This document shows positions 47,004-56,016 of a DNA stretch of 64,000 nucleotides, in pieces. The stretch covers positions 3,005,501 through 3,069,500 of the forward strand of contig NZ_CP096971.1 of assembly GCF_024758705.1 (NCBI RefSeq). Direction: 5' to 3'. The notes under the pieces are model-generated. The model did no database searches, was not told the origin of the DNA, and saw only the letters and a program-made list of their open reading frames with translations. The stretch is from Sphingomonas sp. SUN019 (GTDB lineage Bacteria; Pseudomonadota; Alphaproteobacteria; Sphingomonadales; Sphingomonadaceae). Made by a program: the position numbers and the translations under genes. Within the stretch, counting starts at the first letter, position 1. Each line of letters opens with the position of its first letter.

Positions 47004-47849
47004 TCAGTCGCCTTCCAGCAACAACCGCTCGACCTCCGAACCGCCGCCGTAGCGCTCATAAGCCATCAGCGTACCGTCGGCGCGGACGCGGAACAGGGTG
47101 CCGCGGTGGTCGTCGATGCCGTGCGTGCGCAGCACCAAAAGCCATGCGCCGGGGCCATCGAGGTAGCTCAGCACATTGACGATCGCGCGACGCAAGGCGT
47201 CGGGCGTGAAATAATGGATGTTCAGCAGGTTGGCGGCGCGGATGAACTGGAAGCGGGCGCGCAGCCGCGGGTTGTTCACGGTGATGTCGTCCTCGATCAG
47301 CGACACCGCGGATGCGCTGGACAGGCGTGGGCTGACCAGCATCACGGGATGCGTGAAGCGCTTTCGCCGCCGCCGGTCGCGAATCGCGCCGCCCAGCAGC
47401 CGGTCGGCTGACCAGCGCACCGCGGCCATGCCGGTGACATAGTCCAGCCGCCGCCGCCACGGCCGGAGCGACCGGCCCATCACCTCATATTGCAGGACGT
47501 GCCCCTCCGGCTCGACCAGCGCGCGGCACCCCCACGGCAGGTCGACCAGGTCGGCGCGCAGGAGGCGATCGGTGCCGGTGATCGTCACGTCATGGCCCGC
47601 CGCCCGCAACGCCGCGCGTAGTTCCAGCGTGGTGACGCCAGACGAGATGCCGAGGTCGAGCACCTCGCGCAGCTGCCCGCCTTCCGCGCCGATCCGTCGC
47701 GCGACCGCGGCGTCGATTGCGTCGAGGCGTCCGGGTTCGGTGCGTTTGAACGTGTCGTTGCCGGTCTTCAGCCCGCCGAAGAAGCGCGCCTCATGCGCGG
47801 CGGTGATCGCCTCGACCGGCATCGTGAAGAAATCGCTCGCCGCCAGCAC
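47004..47849 (-). CDS. SAM-dependent methyltransferase-like protein
   Basis: 281 residues. VLDLGISSGVTTLELRAALR is SAM motif I of a class I methyltransferase. The first 30 residues contain TAAHEARFFGGLKTGNDTFK, and the C-terminal part (RAANLLNIHYFTPDALRRAI, then GAWLLVLRTHG) resembles CheR-like/unknown methyltransferases with a substrate cap. Substrate unknown; possibly a sugar hydroxyl in the glycan made by the flanking operons. GTG 47849 has GGGGG upstream; ATG 47822 is an alternative. Convergent with the lyase gene (3-base gap) and divergent from the GT-C gene. Confidence 0.65.
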   Translation of the reverse strand: MLAASDFFTMPVEAITAAHEARFFGGLKTGNDTFKRTEPGRLDAIDAAVARRIGAEGGQLREVLDLGISSGVTTLELRAALRAAGHDVTITGTDRLLRADLVDLPWGCRALVEPEGHVLQYEVMGRSLRPWRRRLDYVTGMAAVRWSADRLLGGAIRDRRRRKRFTHPVMLVSPRLSSASAVSLIEDDITVNNPRLRARFQFIRAANLLNIHYFTPDALRRAIVNVLSYLDGPGAWLLVLRTHGIDDHRGTLFRVRADGTLMAYERYGGGSEVERLLLEGD

Positions 47850-48009
47850 CAGACGCCCCCGTCCTCGCCGCGAAGTCTGTGCGGCCTAGGCGACCATAGC
47901 AGCGCGTCTGCCAAAGCGGCGACGGCTTGGCGGGGGTACTCCCCCTGCGCGCTCGGCATCGCGGGCGGTGGGTTTATCGTTCGGCGGGCGGATCGCGGGG
48001 AGCGTTGCC

Positions 48010-49659
48010 ATGCACGAGATGACCGGCCGGGAAGATCGGCGGCTGCAGCCGGACACCGCGTCGCGCTGGCGCTGGGCGGCGCTGGCCGCGGCGTTGCTGT
48101 GCGTGCTGGCGATCGCGGCGCGGGTGATGGCGTTTCCGTTGCAGCATGACGAGCAATTCTATGTGAGCGCAGGCGTCTTGTTCTCATTCGACGGATTGTA
48201 TGACGGGCTGGGGTTCAGCCATCTGCCGAACCTGCCGATCCTGCTGGCCGCGATCTACGGGGTGACCGGGACCGACCATTACCTGTTCTTCGGGCGATTG
48301 CTGATCGTTGCCGCGTGGGGCGGGGCGCTGGGCGCGATGTGGCTGATTGGGCGCGCTTATGCGCGGAGCATGCTGGCCGCGGTGGCGCTGGTCGCGTTGC
48401 TGGCGTTCAACGTCGCGCTGCTCGACCAGACCGGCATGACGGTGACAAACAATTTCCTGCCCGTGCCGTTCATGCTGGGCGGACTGTACTGCTTTTTTCG
48501 CGCGGTCGACCGGCCGCTTCCGTCGATCTCGCTGGCAGCGGCGAGCGGATTGCTGCTGGCGTGCGCGGCGGGGCTGAAGGCGAATTACGCGGTGCTGATC
48601 GCGCCGGTCGCGATCGCCGCCCTGATCGCGCCGGCCGGGGGCGGATTCGCCGCGCGGGTGTCGCGGTTGATCGTGCCGATGGTCGTGGGCGGGTTGGTCG
48701 GGCTGGGGCCGTCATTGTGGTTTTTCGCGACCGACCCGGCGGGATTCATTGCGCACAATGTCGCGTTCCACCGCGGGCCGCAGCTGCATTACTGGGCGCT
48801 TCATGCCGATCCGGACGCGCCGCAGGTCATCGCGCTGCGCGACAAGCTGATCCTTGCACGGTCGCAGTGGTTTTCGGGCACGACGCTGGTGACCGCGGTG
48901 GCGATCGTGACACTGGCGTTCGCGGCCGGACGCCGATTGCTTGACTGGCGGATCGCGCTGGTGGCGGCGATGCTGGCGTTGTCGTTCGCGCTCTCGTTCC
49001 TGCCGACGCCCGCCTTTCCGCAATATTATACGATTCCGATCCCGTTCGCGGTTCTGCTGCTGGGGCTGATCGCGGGCGTGCTGGACGATGAGCGCCGCGC
49101 CGCTGCGCGACCGCTGCTGATTGCGGCGATCGCGGTGTCGGGGGTGATCGCTGCGCCGTTGCTGGTCGCCGCGCTGCCCACGGTCGCCGAGCCCAAGAAG
49201 GTCACGGGCGCGCGCGTCCACCGCGACGGCGCGCTGATCGCGGCGATGGCGCGCGCCGGCGGACGGACCGGCCGGATCGCGACCCTGGGGCCGCTGCACG
49301 CGCTGGAGGGGGGCGTGCCGATCTATCCAGGGCTTGCCCTGGGACCGTTCGTCTATCGCGCGCTGCAATGGGTTCCGGCGGACGAGCTGCGTCATTACCG
49401 CCATCCCGTCACGCCTGCGAGCGTAGGCGCGGTGCTGGATCGCGATCCGCCCGCCGCGGTGGTCGTGGGCTATGAGGGCGCGCTGGACCGGCCGTTGCTC
49501 GATTGGGCGCTGGCGCATGGTTACGTGCCGACGCGCATGAAGCTGCGCAATTCGGGCGATGCGGATCAGGCGATCGTGCTGGTCGCCCCGCTGGCTAGCG
49601 CACCTCGCGCAGCGCCGTCGACGCCTGCGATTCCAGCGACAGCGGTCCCGCGCCGTTGA
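48010..49659 (+). CDS. GT-C family integral membrane glycosyltransferase
   Basis: 549 residues with about ten membrane helices. The first periplasmic loop after TM1 carries LQHDEQFYVSAG with Asp47-Glu48, the metal/catalytic acid site of GT39/GT83-type (PMT/ArnT-like) enzymes that use polyprenyl-phosphate sugars. The C-terminal part beyond ~400 is soluble and periplasmic. Its convergent partner (65-base overlap) is a GtrB-like polyprenyl-phosphate glycosyltransferase, a natural donor-making enzyme. Likely decorates lipid A, the polysaccharide or a protein in the periplasm. Start ATG 48010. Confidence 0.82.
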   Translation: MHEMTGREDRRLQPDTASRWRWAALAAALLCVLAIAARVMAFPLQHDEQFYVSAGVLFSFDGLYDGLGFSHLPNLPILLAAIYGVTGTDHYLFFGRLLIVAAWGGALGAMWLIGRAYARSMLAAVALVALLAFNVALLDQTGMTVTNNFLPVPFMLGGLYCFFRAVDRPLPSISLAAASGLLLACAAGLKANYAVLIAPVAIAALIAPAGGGFAARVSRLIVPMVVGGLVGLGPSLWFFATDPAGFIAHNVAFHRGPQLHYWALHADPDAPQVIALRDKLILARSQWFSGTTLVTAVAIVTLAFAAGRRLLDWRIALVAAMLALSFALSFLPTPAFPQYYTIPIPFAVLLLGLIAGVLDDERRAAARPLLIAAIAVSGVIAAPLLVAALPTVAEPKKVTGARVHRDGALIAAMARAGGRTGRIATLGPLHALEGGVPIYPGLALGPFVYRALQWVPADELRHYRHPVTPASVGAVLDRDPPAAVVVGYEGALDRPLLDWALAHGYVPTRMKLRNSGDADQAIVLVAPLASAPRAAPSTPAIPATAVPRR

Positions 49660-50587
49660 GTTGAGCCTCGATGATTGGGGTCGGACGCGCCTTCGACTGC
49701 ATGAAGATGCGGCCGAGATATTCGCCGATGATCCCCAGGAACAACGCGTTCAGCATGATGCCGAGCAACAGAAGCAGCGTCGTCGTGGCGAAACCGGCGG
49801 GCCAGTTCTGTCCGAAGATCACGCGACCGGCGAGATAGCCGACGATCCCCAGCATTGTCGCGACGCCGACCGCGATGCCGACGCCGGATGCGACGCGCAG
49901 GGGAATCAGCGAATGGTTCAGCACGCCATCCATCGCGAGGCCGACCATCTTGCTGAACGGGAACTTGCTTTCGCCCGCGACCCGCGCAGCGCGATCGTAT
50001 TCGAAGCCGATCTGCGAAAAGCCCATCGAGCTGATCAGGCCGCGCAGATACGGGCTGGTGTCGCGCACCGCACGCAATTCCGTCAGCAGCCGCGCATCGA
50101 CCAGCCGAAATTCGCCCGCGTCGTGCGGCAGATCGTCCTCGCTCAGCGCGTTGACCATGCGGTAGAACCAGCGCCGCGACGCCGCGGTCAGCGGGCCGTC
50201 GGCCAGCGAGCGGCGCACGCCGTATACCACCTGATGACCCTGCCGCCACAACGCGAGCATTTCGGGAATGCGATCGGGCGGATCTTGCAGGTCGCAATCG
50301 ATCTGCACCGAACAATCGCCGCGCGCGCTTTGGTAGGCGATCAACAAGGATCGTTGATAGCCGTAGTTGCGCGCGAACCGGATCACGCGGACGCGCGGGT
50401 CGCGCTCGGCGATGGCGCGCAGCAGCGGGAAGGTGCGGTCGGTGGAATGGTTGTCGGTGAAGATGATCTCGCAATCGTGATCGGGTAGCGCGTCGAACAC
50501 CGCGACGATCGCGGCATAGGCGCGCTCGACGTTCGCCTCCTCATTATAGGCGGGCACCAGCACCGAGACGAGCGTGGGAGCGGTCAT
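49595..50587 (-). CDS. GtrB/DPM-like polyprenyl-phosphate glycosyltransferase (GT2)
   Basis: 330 residues. GT-A domain: LVSVLVPAYNEEANVERAYA, DNHSTDRT, RFARNYGYQRSLLIAYQSAR, and the IDCDLQDPP metal site. Two C-terminal membrane helices (about 232-258 and 268-300) with LNALFLGIIGEYLGRIF, the signature of GtrB/ArnC-type enzymes that make undecaprenyl-phosphate sugars. It is the last gene of the CDP-sugar operon (start overlaps the reductase stop by 4 bases), so its donor is probably the CDP-sugar made by that operon. No GtrA-type flippase is seen. Confidence 0.88.
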   Translation of the reverse strand: MTAPTLVSVLVPAYNEEANVERAYAAIVAVFDALPDHDCEIIFTDNHSTDRTFPLLRAIAERDPRVRVIRFARNYGYQRSLLIAYQSARGDCSVQIDCDLQDPPDRIPEMLALWRQGHQVVYGVRRSLADGPLTAASRRWFYRMVNALSEDDLPHDAGEFRLVDARLLTELRAVRDTSPYLRGLISSMGFSQIGFEYDRAARVAGESKFPFSKMVGLAMDGVLNHSLIPLRVASGVGIAVGVATMLGIVGYLAGRVIFGQNWPAGFATTTLLLLLGIMLNALFLGIIGEYLGRIFMQSKARPTPIIEAQLNGAGPLSLESQASTALREVR

Positions 50588-51561
50588 GCCGAGGCCGCCA
50601 TCGCAGACGCTGCCGTCGGAACTGCCACGCGATCGGGCAGTCGCGCTGCCCGGTGCGCACGCACCGTGCGCGCGACGCCGTCGCGCAGCGAGACCGCGGG
50701 CCGCCAGCCGAGTTGCGCGAAGGCGCGCGCGTTGCTGCCCCAGATGGTCCGCGCGCCGCGTCCGGCCGCATTGCCGAAATGGAGTCGCGCGGGATCATAG
50801 CCGCACGAACGCGCTACCAGATCGGCGATGTCGCGCACGGTCGGGGCCATGCCGGAGGACAGGTTGACGATGGCGCAGCCCGCGCGGTCGGCTGCGGCGA
50901 GGCGGCGGAGGCCGTCGATCGCGTCCTCGATGAAGATCATGTCGCGACGCGCCAGCGGTGCGTTGATCATACTGTCCTCACCCGCCAGGCAGCGATCGAT
51001 CAGCCACGGGAGCAGGAAGGTGCGTGACTGGCCCGGGCCGTAGGTCAACGCCAGGCGTGCGGTGCGGACCGGGAAGGGAAGTTGCGGCTGGAGCATCCGG
51101 CAATAATGCGCGCCCGCCACCATCGCGGCGGTATAGGGGGACAAAGGCTGTTCGCGCTGGTCCTCGTCAGAAGGAGTCGCCCCGTCGCCATATTCGGCGA
51201 GCGACCCGGCGCGGATGAACGCCTTCAGCGGCGGCCGGACGCTGACCGCTGCGGCGAGCAGGGCGATCAGATTGTCGAGATCGCCCAGCAATGCGCGGCG
51301 ATTGGGTTCCGGCGGCGGATTGCCACGCCCGGAATCGCTGGCCAGATGATAGATCAACGTCGGGCGCGCTGCCGCAACGCAATCCTCCACGTCGTACCGG
51401 TCGGACAGATCGATCGCATGCGTGGTGACACCGTCGATACCCAAGGAACTCGATCCCGGCCGGACGACGATGTGGACCTCGCTGCCCTCCGCCAGATGCC
51501 GTGCGGCAAGGCGCGCGCCGATGAAGCCCGCGCCCCCCGTGATCAGAACCCGCTCGGTCAT
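50584..51561 (-). CDS. NAD(P)-dependent sugar 4-ketoreductase/epimerase (extended SDR)
   Basis: 325 residues. VLITGGAGFIGARLAARHL is the GxxGxxG site. The usual catalytic YxxxK reads SPYTAAMVAGAHYCR, so the Tyr is present but Lys is replaced by Met/Val at the standard spacing. GPGQSRTFLLPWLIDRCLAG is a sugar-binding segment of the RmlD/ColC/RfbJ type. Downstream of the dehydratase and C-methyltransferase it should reduce the 4-keto group of the CDP-sugar, but loss of the Lys makes catalytic activity uncertain. It lies 10 bases after the methyltransferase gene and overlaps the GT2 gene by 4. Confidence 0.78.
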   Translation of the reverse strand: MTERVLITGGAGFIGARLAARHLAEGSEVHIVVRPGSSSLGIDGVTTHAIDLSDRYDVEDCVAAARPTLIYHLASDSGRGNPPPEPNRRALLGDLDNLIALLAAAVSVRPPLKAFIRAGSLAEYGDGATPSDEDQREQPLSPYTAAMVAGAHYCRMLQPQLPFPVRTARLALTYGPGQSRTFLLPWLIDRCLAGEDSMINAPLARRDMIFIEDAIDGLRRLAAADRAGCAIVNLSSGMAPTVRDIADLVARSCGYDPARLHFGNAAGRGARTIWGSNARAFAQLGWRPAVSLRDGVARTVRAHRAARLPDRVAVPTAASAMAASA

Positions 51562-51571
51562 CGCCGCGCCG

Positions 51572-52795
51572 TCAGGACACGAGCGTCGGCTGCGGCAGCG
51601 GCACCAGAAACCGCCCTCCGCGCGCGGTGAAATCGGTTTGTTGCGCGCGGATCTCGTCGAAGAAATTCCACGCCAGCACCATCAGCACGTCGGGCCTTTC
51701 TTCCGCGATCGCGTCCACGTCGCGCACCGGAATCTTCATGCCGGGCGAATAGAGGCCGTGCTTCAGCGGGTTGCGGTCGACCAGGAAATCCAGCTTGTCG
51801 GGGCCGATGCCGAAATAGTTGAGCAGGGTGTTTCCCTTCGCCGGTGCGCCATAGCCGGCGACTTTCAGCCCCTGGCCCTTCAGATCGCCGAGCATCGCCG
51901 CGAGTTGTTTGCCGATCGCGCTGATCCGGTCGGCGAATTTGTCATAGGTGTCGGCGTCCAGCATCCCGGCGTCGCGTTCCTCCTGCAGCATGTCCGCCAC
52001 CGCAGCGGTCGGCTTGCGTGTGCCGGTGTGGCGCAGGAACACGCGCATCGACCCGCCGTGGACGGTGAGCCGGTCGACATCGACGACCTCCAGATCGAAG
52101 AACGCGCCCAATTTCTGCAATGACAACAGGCTGAATTCGGAGACATGTTCCTGATATACGGTGTCGAATTCATTGTGTTCCAGCAGCTTGCGCGCCCACG
52201 GCACCTCGATCACGAACACGCCGTCGGGGGCGAGCAGATGTTCCACCCCGGCCATGAAATTGTGCAGGTCGCCGATGTGGTTGAAGGTGTTGGTGGTGAC
52301 GATGACCTTCGCCGGTCCGCGTTCTTTTCGGACGGTTTCCGCGGTTTTCGGATCGAAATAGGCGACATGGATCTCGACTCCGCGCTCCTTGGCGATCTCC
52401 GCCAGATTGGCCGCGGGATCGACGCCCAGCGTCTTTGCGCCCAGCGCATTGCAGGCGCGCAGCAGCAGGCCGTCGTTCGCGCCGATGTCGACGATCAGCC
52501 CGCCCTCGGCCTCCTTCGTCAGCACCTCCGCGAATGCGCCGAAATGCGTGTGCATCGTATCCGCACCCGACGGAACGTACAGATAGTGGCGGAAGAAATC
52601 GGCCGGGATCTGGTCCGCGACCTGGATCAACCCGCAATGCAGGCAGGCTTGCGTGTTCAGCGCGAAGCTCGGCTGTACCTCCGCCAGTTCGGCTGCGCGC
52701 ACGAACATGTTCGCGGGGGGATGATCGCCCATCGGCAGGAACAGATACGGTTTCGGCGCAAGGCAGGCGCGGCATTCGTGCAACTGGTCGTTCAT
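51572..52795 (-). CDS. NDP-sugar C-methyltransferase (TylC3/NovU-like)
   Basis: 407 residues. An N-terminal zinc finger with CRAC (Cys8, Cys11) and CLHC (Cys51, Cys54). The SAM domain has LIVDIGANDGLLLRACNALG (about 100-119), and YQEHVSEFSL matches the catalytic EHxxxFS motif of TylC3-type enzymes. The C-terminal half (GYGAPAKGNTLLNYF; VLAWNFFDEI) is the C-terminal methyltransferase domain of that family. These enzymes methylate the carbon next to a keto group of a deoxy sugar nucleotide. Placed between the dehydratase and ketoreductase genes of a CDP-sugar operon, it predicts a branched (C-methyl) sugar. Confidence 0.88.
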   Translation of the reverse strand: MNDQLHECRACLAPKPYLFLPMGDHPPANMFVRAAELAEVQPSFALNTQACLHCGLIQVADQIPADFFRHYLYVPSGADTMHTHFGAFAEVLTKEAEGGLIVDIGANDGLLLRACNALGAKTLGVDPAANLAEIAKERGVEIHVAYFDPKTAETVRKERGPAKVIVTTNTFNHIGDLHNFMAGVEHLLAPDGVFVIEVPWARKLLEHNEFDTVYQEHVSEFSLLSLQKLGAFFDLEVVDVDRLTVHGGSMRVFLRHTGTRKPTAAVADMLQEERDAGMLDADTYDKFADRISAIGKQLAAMLGDLKGQGLKVAGYGAPAKGNTLLNYFGIGPDKLDFLVDRNPLKHGLYSPGMKIPVRDVDAIAEERPDVLMVLAWNFFDEIRAQQTDFTARGGRFLVPLPQPTLVS

Positions 52796-52821
52796 CTTCT
52801 TCCCCCCAAAATTCGAAAAAC

Positions 52822-54039
52822 TCAGGCCGCGCCGGCGCGACGCGCCGAGGTGACGTGTGCGGTTGCAAAGTCGGCGAAACTCTCGTGGACGTAGTCGATC
52901 TGCGCGTCGGTCAGGCCGTGATGGCAGGCGAGCAGCATCCCGCCGCGCATCACCGCATCGGCGACCGGATAACCGCCGGGCGCGGCGCGCAGGTCGACGT
53001 TGGCCATCGCGGGCTGGCGCAGGATGTTGCCGGTGAACACGACGCGCGTCTGGATGTCGCGCTGTTCGAGCCAGACCTGCAGGTCGCGGCGCGAGAAAGG
53101 CGCATCTTCGCGGATCGTCAGCGGGAAGGCGAGCCAGCCGGTGACCGAGCGATCCAGCTGCTGCGGCAGGACGAACCAGTCCTCGTAAGCGGCGAAGAAA
53201 TCCATGTGCCGCACGAAATTGCGTTCGCGCAAGCCGATGTTCTGTTGCAGCTTGTCGAGCTGGACCAGCCCGAACGCAGCGCCGATTTCGGACGGTTCGA
53301 GATTGTAGCCAAGTTCCTCGAACACGAACTTAGCGTCGTATTGAATCCCCTGCAGCGACACGTTGAAGCGGTTTTCGACATTTTCCGAATCGACGAACAG
53401 CGACGACGATCGCCCCCACGACCGCAACAGCTTTGCACGGTCGGCCAGCGCCTGATCGTTGACGCACAGCATGCCGCCGTTGCCCGCGGCGTTGATGACG
53501 TGACTGCCATAGAAACTGGTCGTGCTGATATGCGAACGGGTGCCCGTGCTGCTGCCGCGGATGGTCGCGCCGAGCGTGTCGGCGCTGTCTTCTATCACCA
53601 TCAGATTGTGGTCGTCGGCGATAGCGCGGATGCGGTCCCAGTCGGGCAGATTGCCGATCAGCGACGGGATCATCATCGCACGCGTGGCAGGCGTGATCAT
53701 CACCTCGATCGAGTCCTCGTCGATATTGTATGTGCCTTCGCGCACGTCGACGAAGGCGGGGATCAGGCCGTTGCGGATGATCGGCGCGACGGTGGTGACA
53801 AAGGTCAGGGCGGGAGTGATAACCTCGCTGCCCGGCGGCAGTTTCAGCAGTTCGACCGCCAGATAGTTGGCCGAGGAACCCGAATTGACCATGATGCCGT
53901 GGCGCTTGGCGAACAGTTCGGCGATCCGCGCCTCCATCGTGCGGACGCGCTCGCCCATCTGCGTCGAGCTGCGCAGCACGTCGACGACGGCCGCGATCTC
54001 TTCCTCGCCGTGTACGGTCTGGCCATAGTTCACGCGCAT
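52822..54039 (-). CDS. PLP/PMP-dependent NDP-4-keto-6-deoxyhexose 3-dehydratase, His-type, no Fe-S cysteines
   Basis: 405 residues, DegT/RfbH fold. The lysine that normally binds PLP is His180 (TTSFYGSHVINAAGNGG), as in DdhC/RfbH (E1) and ColD, so it should be a dehydratase, not a transaminase. Homology to E1 is clear to the end (VVFTGNILRQPAMANVDLR; HHGLTDAQIDYVHESFADF). However, the E1 segment with the [2Fe-2S] cysteines after RDWGRDCWC is SWGRSSSLFVDSENVENRF here: no Cys. This suggests ColD-like, glutamate-driven chemistry needing no DdhD reductase; none is present. It overlaps rfbG by 10 bases. Confidence 0.82.
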   Translation of the reverse strand: MRVNYGQTVHGEEEIAAVVDVLRSSTQMGERVRTMEARIAELFAKRHGIMVNSGSSANYLAVELLKLPPGSEVITPALTFVTTVAPIIRNGLIPAFVDVREGTYNIDEDSIEVMITPATRAMMIPSLIGNLPDWDRIRAIADDHNLMVIEDSADTLGATIRGSSTGTRSHISTTSFYGSHVINAAGNGGMLCVNDQALADRAKLLRSWGRSSSLFVDSENVENRFNVSLQGIQYDAKFVFEELGYNLEPSEIGAAFGLVQLDKLQQNIGLRERNFVRHMDFFAAYEDWFVLPQQLDRSVTGWLAFPLTIREDAPFSRRDLQVWLEQRDIQTRVVFTGNILRQPAMANVDLRAAPGGYPVADAVMRGGMLLACHHGLTDAQIDYVHESFADFATAHVTSARRAGAA

Positions 54040-55187
54040 GCTGCAACCTCGATCCGTGGTTCGTGGGCGGGGAATGGGTGGACCGACGCGGACGCCGCGC
54101 CCACATATTGTGCGATCTGGCGTTCGGTGACGTCGCGCATGTCGGCGACGCCGAGATGCTGCGCGCGATACCAGTCGACGGTCAGTGCGATCGCTTCGTC
54201 CAGCGACAGGCGTGGCCGCCAGCCGAGGCCCACCTTCGCCTTGGTGCTGTCGAGCCGCAGAATGCCCGCTTCGGGATGCGCGGCGCCTTCGTCGCCGAAC
54301 ACGAAGCGTGGGCCGTCCGCGCCCCATTCCCGCGCGAAGCCGTCGGCGAGCGTGCGGACGTCGACGACGCTGTCGGTGTCGGGGCCGAAATTCCATGCCT
54401 CTCCGACACGGCGATCGCCCTCAAGGATCGCGGTCGCAACCTGAAGATAGCCCGCGAGCGGTTCCAGGACGTGCTGCCACGGGCGGACGCTGTGCGGATT
54501 GCGGATCGTGACCGGCGTTCCCGCGGCCACCGCGCGGGCGATGTCGGGCACCAGCCGGTCGACCGACCAGTCGCCGCCGCCAAAGACGTTTCCGGCGCGC
54601 ACGCTGGCGATGATCGGCGCGTCCTCGCCCGTAAAGAAGGACCGGCGATACGCATCGACGACGATCTCTGCGCAGCCCTTTGAGGCGCTGTATGGATCGG
54701 CCCCGCCGAGCGGATCGCTTTCGCGGTAGCCCCACACCCATTCGCGATTGTCGTAGCATTTGTCGCTGGTGACCGCGACGACGCCCTTCAGCGACGGCAT
54801 CCGCCGCGCGGCGTCGAGCACCGCGGCGGTCCCGACGACGTTGGTGCGCATCGTGCCGACCGGATCGGCGTAGGACGGCCGCACCAGCGACTGCGCGGCC
54901 ATGTGGATGACAAGCTCCGCGTCGATCCCTGCGAGAACCGCGGCCAGCGCCGATTCGTCGGCGATATCGGCGATACGATGATCGACCAGTTCGGCGACCC
55001 GCGCGGCGTCGAACAGGTTCGGACCCTCGCTTGGCGGCGGCAGCGCCACCGCCGTGACGTCGGCCCCCAGCCGCCGCAGCCAGATCGCCAGCCAACCGCC
55101 CTTGAACCCGGTATGCCCGGTCAGCAGGACGCGGCGGCCGCCGAACGCGGCGCGCGCGCGGGCTTCGTCGAACCCCGCGTCACGCAT
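54030..55187 (-). CDS. rfbG: CDP-glucose 4,6-dehydratase
   Basis: 385 residues. The N-terminal nucleotide site VLLTGHTGFKGGWLAIWLRR (from residue 20) is specific to CDP-glucose dehydratases. SDKCYDNREWVWGYRESDPL and DPYSASKGCAEIVVDAYRRS contain the catalytic Tyr-x3-Lys, and RAGNVFGGGDWSVDRLVPDI is another family block. It makes CDP-4-keto-6-deoxyglucose with tightly bound NAD+. ATG 55187 overlaps the rfbF stop by 8 bases. Second step of the CDP-sugar operon. Confidence 0.95.
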   Translation of the reverse strand: MRDAGFDEARARAAFGGRRVLLTGHTGFKGGWLAIWLRRLGADVTAVALPPPSEGPNLFDAARVAELVDHRIADIADESALAAVLAGIDAELVIHMAAQSLVRPSYADPVGTMRTNVVGTAAVLDAARRMPSLKGVVAVTSDKCYDNREWVWGYRESDPLGGADPYSASKGCAEIVVDAYRRSFFTGEDAPIIASVRAGNVFGGGDWSVDRLVPDIARAVAAGTPVTIRNPHSVRPWQHVLEPLAGYLQVATAILEGDRRVGEAWNFGPDTDSVVDVRTLADGFAREWGADGPRFVFGDEGAAHPEAGILRLDSTKAKVGLGWRPRLSLDEAIALTVDWYRAQHLGVADMRDVTERQIAQYVGAASASVHPFPAHEPRIEVAACA

Positions 55188-56016
55188 GGCCGGAAATCTG
55201 CGCCGAAATCTTGGGAGTGACGGGGATCGTGTGCGGTGCGGGGACGGGCTCCGGCACAAGCCACGGCGCATTGCCGGCGGCGCACAGGTCGGACAGGTGA
55301 TCGCGGTCGCGCACCGTGTCCATCGGGTGCCAGAAACCGGTGTGGCGATAGGCGTAGAGTTCGCCGTCCGCGGCCAGCCGTGCGAGCGGGGCCTGTTCCA
55401 GCGGCTCTGCATCGCCGGTCAGGTAATCCAGCACCTGCGGCTCGAATACGAAGAAGCCGCCGTTGATCCAGGTCTCGTGCTTCTGGACCTTTTCGGTGAA
55501 CTCGCTGACCCGGTCGCCTTCCAGCTCCAGGTTGCCGAAGCGCGCGGGGGGCTGGACCGCGGTGACGGTGGCGAGTCCGCCGTGCTCGCGGTGGAAGCGG
55601 ACGAGTTCGTTGATGTCGATATCACCGACGCCGTCCGAATAGGTGACCATGAACGGCTCGTCGCCGATCCACTCGCGCAATCGCAGCAGGCGTCCGCCGG
55701 TCATCGTCAACTCGCCGGTGTCGACGACCGATACGTCCCAATCGATCGAGCGATTCTGCTTCAGCGCGATCGCGCCATTGTCGACATGGATCGTGAAGTC
55801 GTTCGCCATGAAGTGCAGGTCGTGGAAGAATTTCTTCATCACCATCGATTTGTAGCCGCACGCGACGACGAAATCGGTGAAGCCCTGACGCGCATAGATG
55901 TCCATGACGTGCAGGATGATCGGGCGTCCGGCGACCTCCACCATCGGTTTCGGAATGCGGACCGTCTCCTCCGCCAGGCGCGAGCCGAGACCGCCCGCCA
56001 GCAGCACCGTCTTCAT
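55180..56016 (-). CDS. rfbF: Glucose-1-phosphate cytidylyltransferase
   Basis: 278 residues. MKTVLLAGGLGSRLAEETVR, then IPKPMVEVAGRPIILHVM, is the nucleotidyltransferase signature with the RfbF-specific EET/IPKPM variant; VTYSDGVGDIDI carries the metal-binding Asp; GGFFVFEPQVLDYL and FWHPMDTVRDRDHL are further RfbF blocks. It makes CDP-glucose from CTP and glucose-1-phosphate, the first step of the operon. GGGGG lies just before the ATG on the minus strand. About 20 C-terminal residues extend past the usual end. Confidence 0.95.
   Translation of the reverse strand: MKTVLLAGGLGSRLAEETVRIPKPMVEVAGRPIILHVMDIYARQGFTDFVVACGYKSMVMKKFFHDLHFMANDFTIHVDNGAIALKQNRSIDWDVSVVDTGELTMTGGRLLRLREWIGDEPFMVTYSDGVGDIDINELVRFHREHGGLATVTAVQPPARFGNLELEGDRVSEFTEKVQKHETWINGGFFVFEPQVLDYLTGDAEPLEQAPLARLAADGELYAYRHTGFWHPMDTVRDRDHLSDLCAAGNAPWLVPEPVPAPHTIPVTPKISAQISGHA

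What the first reader, a model, noticed from the sequence alone, without database searches (positions are those of the whole stretch)
49595..56016. CDP-sugar operon predicts a branched C-methyl deoxysugar made without an Fe-S reductase
The operon encodes, in order, RfbF, RfbG, an RfbH/DdhC homologue, a TylC3-type C-methyltransferase, an SDR ketoreductase and a GtrB-like transferase. The DdhC homologue keeps the His (His180) in place of the PLP lysine, but every cysteine of the E1 [2Fe-2S] motif is gone and no DdhD/E3 gene is present. That combination resembles ColD, which works on GDP-sugars. A ColD-like 3-dehydratase on a CDP-sugar followed by C-methylation would give an unusual branched CDP-3,6-dideoxyhexose. 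The CDP assignment follows from rfbF and rfbG; the order of reactions is inference.
Basis: partly seen in the sequence, partly recalled or inferred. Interest (0 to 1): 0.72.

Follow-up and report, generated by a model that had tools for sequence, protein, structure and literature searches.

The report
Iron-sulfur-free CDP-deoxysugar operon with C-methyltransferase
This bacterium carries a compact gene set that probably builds an unusual methyl-branched sugar for its surface polysaccharide, removing an oxygen with a vitamin-B6 enzyme that lacks the iron-sulfur cluster used by the best-known enzyme for that step, and the same enzyme type turns up in scattered bacteria of several phyla.

Summary
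The operon is real and tightly packed: rfbF, rfbG, an RfbH-like enzyme, a TcaB9/mycarose-type C-methyltransferase, an SDR and a GtrB-like transferase. The RfbH-like protein has His180 at the PLP-lysine site and none of the four E1 [2Fe-2S] cysteines. In all 46 related loci His180 is kept and three of the four Cys positions never hold Cys; 41 of 46 also carry rfbF and rfbG. It fails NCBI's RfbH equivalog cut-off and forms its own clade beside E1 and ColD; its sister is unresolved. The complete genome has no E3-like reductase, but 5 of 13 tested Fe-S-type genomes gave none either, so that alone proves little. Best reading: a ColD-like, PMP/glutamate-dependent 3-dehydratase acting on CDP-4-keto-6-deoxyglucose. 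The methyltransferase is an optional tailoring step, lost or gained repeatedly. New here: the SDR lacks the Lys of YxxxK (Met147), and in 169 of 171 aligned rows either Arg117 or Lys147 is present but not both, so it may be a ketoreductase with a relocated positive charge. The product, probably a C-methyl-3,6-dideoxyhexose passed via undecaprenyl phosphate to a periplasmic glycosyltransferase, is inferred, not shown.

The parts
55180..56016 (-). rfbF, glucose-1-phosphate cytidylyltransferase (CDP-glucose synthesis), 278 aa
   Evidence: TIGR02623 336 bits, cut-off 300.25; tblastn hit over 100 bits in 42 of 46 related loci
54030..55187 (-). rfbG, CDP-glucose 4,6-dehydratase, 385 aa from the internal ATG; with that start it overlaps the end of rfbF by 8 bases, and its end overlaps the start of the next gene by 10
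   Evidence: TIGR02622 442 bits, cut-off 278.45; solved CDP-glucose 4,6-dehydratase 1rkx E 1.2e-108; SDK...YxxxK signature as in the table of PMC8987622 (passage); in 42 of 46 loci
52822..54039 (-). Fe-S-free RfbH-like 3-dehydratase, 405 aa; His180 at the PLP-lysine site; A153/S212/L214/V221 at the four E1 cluster cysteines
51572..52795 (-). sugar C-methyltransferase, 407 aa (TcaB9 / sugar 3-C-methyltransferase type)
   Evidence: PF08421, PF13489, PF08484; D-mycarose 3-C-methyltransferase 4rv9 E 4.5e-87; Tyr73, His173, Tyr214, Glu216, His217 in register with the solved 3-C-methyltransferase 5t64
50584..51561 (-). extended SDR, 325 aa, probable C4-ketoreductase; Tyr143 kept, YxxxK Lys replaced by Met147, Arg117 in strand beta5
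   Evidence: PF01370; AlphaFold2 pLDDT 90.0 with strand 114-120; best Foldseek match 2pk3 GDP-4-keto-6-deoxy-D-mannose reductase
49595..50587 (-). GtrB/PgfS-like polyprenyl-phosphate glycosyltransferase, 330 aa, two C-terminal hydrophobic segments
   Evidence: PF00535; solved glycosyltransferase sll0501 5ekp E 7.1e-51 (its name GtrB is recalled); hydrophobic segments and presence in 29 of 46 loci
47968..49659 (+). GT-C-like integral membrane protein, 563 aa, about 10 hydrophobic segments; overlaps the gtrB end tail to tail; likely periplasmic transferase partner (GT-C label is my reading)
   Evidence: no Pfam or NCBIfam match; hydrophobic segments by a simple window score; a homologue over 100 bits in the fetched stretch of 30 of 46 related loci

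Best explanation
The operon makes a CDP-activated, probably C-methyl-branched 3,6-dideoxyhexose and hands it to undecaprenyl phosphate for decoration of an exported polysaccharide. RfbF and RfbG make CDP-4-keto-6-deoxyglucose. The RfbH-like enzyme holds PMP (His180 in place of Lys), removes the C3 hydroxyl, and releases CDP-4-keto-3,6-dideoxyhexose by hydrolysis, with glutamate restoring PMP as in ColD; no Fe-S cluster or E3 reductase takes part. The SAM-dependent methyltransferase then adds a methyl next to the C4 ketone, most likely at C3. The SDR, with Arg117 perhaps standing in for the missing catalytic Lys, reduces C4 with NAD(P)H. GtrB moves the sugar to undecaprenyl phosphate and the GT-C-like protein attaches it in the periplasm. 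Shown by sequence: gene content, active-site residues, missing ligands, conserved order. Inferred: every reaction, the methyl position, the stereochemistry and the acceptor.
For: His180 in 46 of 46 related loci and in 120 of 120 listed homologues (one of the 120 is the window's own; 120 listed of 8000 scored); Ser at the Cys251 position and Leu/Val/Ile at the Cys253 position in all of them; Ala, or in 4 of 46 and 3 of 120 Cys, at the Cys193 position. Fold as E1 and ColD. rfbF and rfbG both present in 41 of 46 loci, against 2 of 15 loci fetched for ColD-type or other non-E1 enzymes, and those two also hold an E1. No PF00970 protein in the complete genome; no E3-like match in 14 of 22 tested genomes with this enzyme. 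28 of 30 loci counted as alphaproteobacterial keep F-G-H-(MT)-SDR-GtrB in order, and 4 of those 28 lack the methyltransferase; a 36-row RfbH tree needs at least 6 gains or losses of it, 4 forced by well-supported branches. This fits a tailoring step on a finished 3-deoxy-4-keto intermediate. 25 of 27 printed methyltransferases keep the Tyr/His/Tyr/Glu/His set. ColD-type chemistry with glutamate and PLP is described in PMC8987622 (passages) and PMC10440746 (passages).
Against: No activity was measured for any member here, and I found no report of one. The sister of the clade is unresolved (90/66 with ColD; AU p 0.376 for grouping with E1). E3 is missing or unrecognised in many genomes with the Fe-S type (E3 in 4 of 23 E1-type loci; of 13 such genomes 5 have a strong match, one of them the query's own, 3 a weak one and 5 none), so its absence is not diagnostic. 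8 of 22 genomes with this enzyme have weaker ferredoxin-reductase-like matches (up to 125 bits). The SDR lacks a catalytic Lys. 3 of 46 loci (L039, L040, L047) have neither rfbF nor rfbG in the fetched flank. Methyl position (C3 or C5) cannot be read from sequence.
Confidence: 0.6

Rival explanations
1. The RfbH-like enzyme still needs outside electrons (SpnQ-like use of a general ferredoxin or flavodoxin reductase), by a route without its own cluster.
For: The genome has several 2Fe-2S (PF00111) proteins (7 hits); SpnQ may use general reductase pairs (PMC8987622 passages); 8 of 22 genomes with this enzyme have weak ferredoxin-reductase-like matches.
Against: E1 and SpnQ both bind a [2Fe-2S] cluster through four Cys (same passages); here three of the four positions carry no Cys in 46 of 46 loci and the fourth does in only 4. 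No E3-like match in 14 of 22 genomes including this one.
Confidence: 0.1
2. The enzyme is a 4-aminotransferase making a CDP-4-amino-4,6-dideoxyhexose rather than a dehydratase.
For: DegT/DnrJ/EryC1/StrS family (PF01041); SpnQ can transaminate without a reductase (PMC8987622 passages); family aminotransferases match the model only a few Z units below E1.
Against: The Schiff-base Lys is His in 46 of 46 loci. The passages report that ColD and E1 did not transaminate under those conditions. No acyl- or formyltransferase lies inside the operon; the C-methyltransferase fits a 4-keto substrate better.
Confidence: 0.1
3. The product is not C-methylated at C3: the methyltransferase acts at C5 (NovU-like, recalled), or it is dispensable and the main product is a plain 3,6-dideoxyhexose.
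For: C5 is also next to the C4 ketone; the operon lacks the methyltransferase in 4 of 28 ordered loci; two copies look damaged (L055 has lost the Tyr and the His of YxEH, L026 is shortened and has lost the first Tyr).
Against: The ten best solved relatives are named 3-C-methyltransferases or TcaB9. Methylation at C3 before or after dehydration would give the same product.
Confidence: 0.3
4. The SDR is not a reductase (Lys lost): a structural or dead paralogue, with C4 reduced by another enzyme.
For: Position 147 is never Lys in 30 of 30 operon SDRs.
Against: NAD(P) motif glycines, Glu123 and Tyr143 stay invariant or nearly so, and position 120 is Ser or Thr in 120 of 120 listed homologues; loss of Lys goes with gain of Arg117, which suggests kept function.
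Confidence: 0.2

Closest known systems
E1 / DdhC / RfbH (CDP-4-keto-6-deoxyglucose 3-dehydrase, Yersinia; 3bcx)
   Same: CDP-sugar operon with rfbF and rfbG; His for Lys; Asp and Tyr at the E1 D194 and Y217 positions; same fold; 36% identity over the structural alignment
   Different: No [2Fe-2S] ligands, below the NF011936 cut-off, no E3 found in the genome, separate clade, one-residue longer active-site loop (GSHVINAAGNGG against PAHHITMGEGG)
ColD (GDP-4-keto-6-deoxymannose 3-dehydratase; 2gms) and the Campylobacter GDP-heptose C3-dehydratases (PMC10440746, passages)
   Same: His for Lys, no Fe-S cluster, expected glutamate/PMP chemistry; ColD has the same fold
   Different: GDP-sugars against CDP here; only 28-29% identity to ColD; Glu against Asp at the E1 D194 position; not in the ColD clade
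SpnQ (TDP-sugar 3-dehydratase)
   Same: His for Lys, C3 deoxygenation (from PMC8987622 passages)
   Different: SpnQ binds a [2Fe-2S] cluster and acts on a TDP-sugar; no SpnQ row was in my tree
TcaB9, D-mycarose 3-C-methyltransferase and other TylC3-type sugar C-methyltransferases
   Same: Three Pfam domains and catalytic residues
   Different: Known ones act on TDP-sugars bearing a hydroxyl or amino group at C3 (recalled); here the expected substrate is a CDP-sugar with CH2 at C3
GtrA/GtrB/GtrS periplasmic glycan modification (recalled)
   Same: GtrB-like GT2 with two C-terminal hydrophobic segments plus a GT-C-like membrane protein kept together in many loci
   Different: I identified no GtrA flippase gene beside the operon (not searched for by profile); the GT-C-like protein matches no curated family

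Membership tests
E1/DdhC/RfbH (NF011936) | Score above the curated equivalog cut-off of 423 bits | tested here: not met
   316.6 bits; two distant clade members, L050 and L043, score 350 and 289
E1/DdhC/RfbH (NF011936) | Four [2Fe-2S] cysteines (E1 C193, C251, C253, C261; numbering recalled, checked against the printed chain) | tested here: not met
   A153, S212, L214, V221
E1/DdhC/RfbH (NF011936) | His in place of the PLP lysine (E1 H220) | tested here: met
   His180
E1/DdhC/RfbH (NF011936) | Partner E3 reductase (DdhD) | tested here: not met
   no PF00970 and no E3-like match in the complete genome; weak as a criterion, since 5 of 13 tested E1-type genomes gave no match either
E1/DdhC/RfbH (NF011936) | CDP-glucose pathway genes beside it | tested here: met
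   rfbF and rfbG; both in 41 of 46 related loci
ColD | His for Lys and no Fe-S cluster ligands | tested here: met
ColD | Falls in the ColD clade | tested here: not met
   own clade 100/100, ColD-type rows a separate clade 100/100
ColD | Acts on a GDP-sugar | not tested
   context points to CDP; no assay
ColD | Glutamate-dependent PMP regeneration, no external reductant | not testable with these tools
   needs purified enzyme
TylC3/TcaB9 sugar C-methyltransferases | Methyltransf_13 + SAM domain + Methyltransf_14 | tested here: met
TylC3/TcaB9 sugar C-methyltransferases | Catalytic Tyr/His/Tyr/Glu/His (roles and TcaB9 numbering recalled) | tested here: met
   Y73, H173, Y214, E216, H217 aligned with solved 3-C-methyltransferase 5t64
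Extended SDR ketoreductases | Catalytic Ser/Thr...YxxxK | tested here: not met
   S120 and Y143 kept, Lys replaced by Met147
GtrB-like polyprenyl-phosphate glycosyltransferases | GT2 domain plus two C-terminal hydrophobic segments, similarity to the solved sll0501 enzyme | tested here: met

The most novel reading that the evidence does not exclude
A fourth kind of sugar 3-dehydratase: a CDP-specific, Fe-S-free, glutamate-driven enzyme found in several phyla, feeding an optional C-methyltransferase that may trap the enolate (or even the enamine) at the deoxygenated C3, followed by an SDR whose catalytic lysine has migrated as an arginine to strand beta5. Together they make a CDP-3-C-methyl-3,6-dideoxyhexose that none of the listings of my literature searches named.
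Probability: 0.4. Interest if true: 0.75.

Novelty: new variant of a known kind. Interest (0 to 1): 0.58.

Why it matters
A 2022 review (PMC8987622, passages read) names as well characterised E1 (CDP, Fe-S), ColD (GDP, no Fe-S) and SpnQ (TDP, Fe-S); a 2023 paper (PMC10440746, passages read) adds GDP-heptose enzymes of the ColD kind. A CDP enzyme without Fe-S would separate two traits that had gone together and give a clean test of whether E1's cluster is needed for the chemistry or is lineage history. It could give a reductase-free, perhaps more air-tolerant route to CDP-3,6-dideoxyhexoses, and would correct labels now carried by its relatives, which range from 'reductase, E1' to 'aminotransferase' and 'transcriptional regulator'. 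The Arg117/Lys147 exchange in the SDR is a testable case of a catalytic charge moving within a very large enzyme family.

Tried and rejected
Idea that the clade is an E1 that lost its cluster: not shown; the tree leans weakly to ColD (90/66) and the AU test does not reject E1+ours (p 0.376). That tree warns of long branches among its outgroup rows and L098, and holds no SpnQ row. Idea that E3 absence proves the mechanism: rejected as not specific. Idea that synteny could fix the reaction order: it shows only that the methyltransferase is optional. A regular-expression hunt for E3 in 23 E1-type loci found 4; tblastn with three of those four as queries found the same 4 of 23, and none in 46 loci of ours or 15 others. 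A regular expression for an acidic motif in the GT-C-like protein was faulty and is not used. In one search two columns labelled as C251 and C253 were off by one; one search gives the right columns and replaces them. Independent-pairs test of Arg117/Lys147: only 2 independent pairs, so no significance. Structure 9wvy (named a putative NDP-4-keto-6-deoxyglucose-3-dehydratase) matches less well than E1 and ColD (134 bits). Literature: 10 counted searches. Listings were partial (20 of 340; 20 of 27; 15 of 718; 40 of 63), complete in 56 (24), 57 (13) and 84 (8); some found nothing. I read passages of PMC8987622 and PMC10440746 only. No listed title or abstract start named a C-methyl CDP-dideoxyhexose or an Fe-S-free CDP 3-dehydratase; subscription papers are mostly not held, so absence from print is not shown.

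Rows dropped or left out: L054 of 47 loci (partial 29% match). The main tree: 24 of our 47 sequences were picked, and 14 of the 75 rows (3 of them ours) were then dropped, leaving 61. The methyltransferase tree used 36 of 47 RfbH rows. From the 34-row SDR set L037, L038, L041 (not the operon SDR) and L021 (cut by the contig end) were dropped, leaving 30. The SDR tree used 60 of 171 rows. The E3 search was given 21 of the 46 loci's genomes plus the window's own, and 13 genomes with a Cys-type RfbH out of the 36 over the cut-off. L052, named a Rickettsiales MAG, was not counted among the 30 alphaproteobacterial loci.
Full report
What is there. Six genes on the minus strand, 56016 down to 49595, run rfbF, rfbG, RfbH-like, C-methyltransferase, SDR, GtrB-like, with overlaps of 4 to 10 bases or gaps of 10 and 26 bases, taking the internal rfbG start, so they are very probably one operon. 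RfbF and RfbG pass their NCBI equivalog cut-offs and point to CDP. RfbG best matches solved CDP-glucose 4,6-dehydratase and has the SDK and YxxxK residues that PMC8987622 tabulates for that enzyme (passage). A GT-C-like membrane protein on the plus strand (47968-49659) overlaps the end of gtrB; it has no curated family, but a homologue lies in the fetched stretch of 30 of 46 related loci. The window's genome is a single 3.81 Mb contig rated 100% complete.

The dehydratase. Aligned with E1 and ColD, the 405-residue protein has His180 at the PLP-lysine site, and Ala153, Ser212, Leu214 and Val221 at E1 Cys193, 251, 253 and 261. A scan of genome contigs gave 47 loci; I dropped L054, a partial 29% match, leaving 46. 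In 46 of 46 His is kept, position 212 is Ser, 214 is Leu and 221 is Ile (42), Ala (3) or Val (1); position 153 is Ala in 42 and Cys in 4. None has a Cys between residues 205 and 230. Among the 120 listed database homologues, one of them the window's own, 120 have His180 and Ser212; 214 is Leu, Val or Ile, 221 is Ile, Val or Pro, and 153 is Ala in 117 and Cys in 3; three have some other Cys in that stretch. By record titles the loci come from Sphingomonadales, Rhodobacterales and kin, and from MAGs named Gemmatimonadota, Acidobacteria, Bacteroidetes, Gammaproteobacteria, Neomarinimicrobiota and Kaiserbacteria, at 56 to 78% identity. The scan used six short patterns of the query, so it is not a census. 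In 398 evenly drawn Pseudomonadota genomes only the window's own reached E 1e-130, while 36 of 398 had an RfbH above the curated cut-off.

Reductase. The genome has no FAD_binding_6 (PF00970) match; one NAD_binding_1 (PF00175) match in a 1104-residue open frame, whose end looks to me like a P450-fused reductase; and 7 Fer2 (PF00111) matches. An E3 found beside an E1-type gene in genome G158 has no match at 1e-10 in this genome, nor in 13 of 21 other genomes with this enzyme; 8 of the 22 have weaker matches, up to 125 bits. I gave that search 21 of the 46 loci's genomes. Of 13 genomes with Cys-type RfbH, 5 have a strong match (190 bits or more, one of them G158 itself), 3 a weak one and 5 none. 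Within E1-type loci E3 was found in 4 of 23, some of them short. So E3 absence fits but does not prove the point; the missing ligands carry the argument.

Nucleotide. rfbF occurs in 42 and rfbG in 42 of 46 loci, both in 41. In 15 loci fetched for ColD-type or other non-E1 enzymes they occur in 2, and both of those also hold an E1 gene; among 23 E1-type loci rfbF occurs in 17 and rfbG in 20.

Methyltransferase. Its nearest solved relatives are D-mycarose 3-C-methyltransferase, a sugar 3-C-methyltransferase and TcaB9. It is present in 26 of 46 loci, and in 1 of 23 E1-type loci. Of 30 loci counted as alphaproteobacterial, 28 keep rfbF-rfbG-rfbH-SDR-gtrB in order, and 4 of these (L018, L028, L031, L033) lack the methyltransferase. 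On a 36-row RfbH tree its presence changes at least 6 times, 4 forced by strong branches. Of 27 printed copies 25 keep the catalytic set; L055 has lost the Tyr and His of YxEH, and L026 is shortened and has lost the first Tyr. It is therefore an optional tailoring enzyme on a pathway that runs without it. Acting on CDP-4-keto-3,6-dideoxyhexose it would place a methyl at C3 (favoured) or C5; acting at C3 before dehydration it would give the same product.

SDR. The cofactor motif, Ser120 and Tyr143 are kept, but the Lys of YxxxK is Met147; in 30 operon SDRs this position is M14, L7, I4, A2, Q2, S1. Of 24 SDR-like frames listed beside E1-type genes and in distant relatives, 22 hold a YxxxK in the expected stretch, by a pattern search without alignment. 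In 171 aligned rows (window counted twice, some near-duplicates) 157 have Arg117 without Lys147, 12 have Lys147 without Arg117, 1 has both (P0256) and 1 neither (P0242). P0232, whose contig length equals that of RfbH homologue P0015, looks like a natural reversal inside the family. On a 60-row tree Lys changes twice and Arg four times; only two independent pairs exist, and in nearly all random pairings both go opposite ways, so this is suggestive only. I propose Arg117 takes over part of the Lys role; its distance to the cofactor was not measured.

Destination. GtrB resembles the solved sll0501 enzyme. Beside the operon lies an exopolysaccharide cluster, read from Pfam matches and partly from NCBIfam matches below their cut-offs: Wzc-like, Wzx, glycosyltransferases and a fused initiating transferase, a PglF/CapD-like dehydratase, a DegT transaminase, a formyltransferase, Wzy, an export protein, a porin and a pectate-lyase-like protein. 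Decoration of that polysaccharide in the periplasm is the likely fate, by inference; most relatives do not show that same neighbourhood (pectate-lyase-like gene in 2 of 46 fetched loci, EpsL-like in 1 of 46).

Verdict. It is a new variant of a known enzyme kind, worth a bench test, with two corrections: it is a clade of its own, and the ketoreductase is atypical.

Noticed in passing
window 50584-51561 and P0121-P0257: SDR family with catalytic Lys of YxxxK lost and Arg117 gained; near-perfect either/or pattern (169 of 171 rows), with P0232 a possible reversal and P0256 carrying both.
   Followed up: partly
L094:6753-7886, L095:3113-4246, L096:6283-7467, L097:6858-7964, L099:6468-7595: Another Fe-S-free His-type DegT clade (SFY..HH...MEGG or LEGG) without rfbF or rfbG in the fetched flanks; substrate unknown.
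   Followed up: no
L098:6800-7894: Single divergent His-type member (SFHVAHNITTGEGG) with only the first of the four E1 cysteines; best solved matches E1, then 9wvy.
   Followed up: no
L100 and L101: Both contigs carry an E1-type and a ColD-type 3-dehydratase a few kilobases apart.
   Followed up: no
L109 (genome G241, same genus as the window's): A congeneric genome has a Cys-type RfbH but no E3-like match, so both enzyme kinds occur in one genus.
   Followed up: partly
L055:11491-12744 and L026:10227-11294: C-methyltransferase copies that look damaged: L055 lost the Tyr and His of YxEH, L026 is shortened, while the rest of the operon stays.
   Followed up: no
window 24676-47000: Exopolysaccharide cluster with PglF/CapD-like dehydratase, DegT transaminase and formyltransferase-like gene, suggesting an N-formyl amino sugar, plus a sulfotransferase-like gene.
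   Followed up: no
window 47004-47849 (-): 281-residue protein without a Pfam or NCBIfam match, with no tblastn hit over 100 bits in the 46 related loci, placed between the pectate-lyase-like gene and the GT-C-like gene.
   Followed up: no
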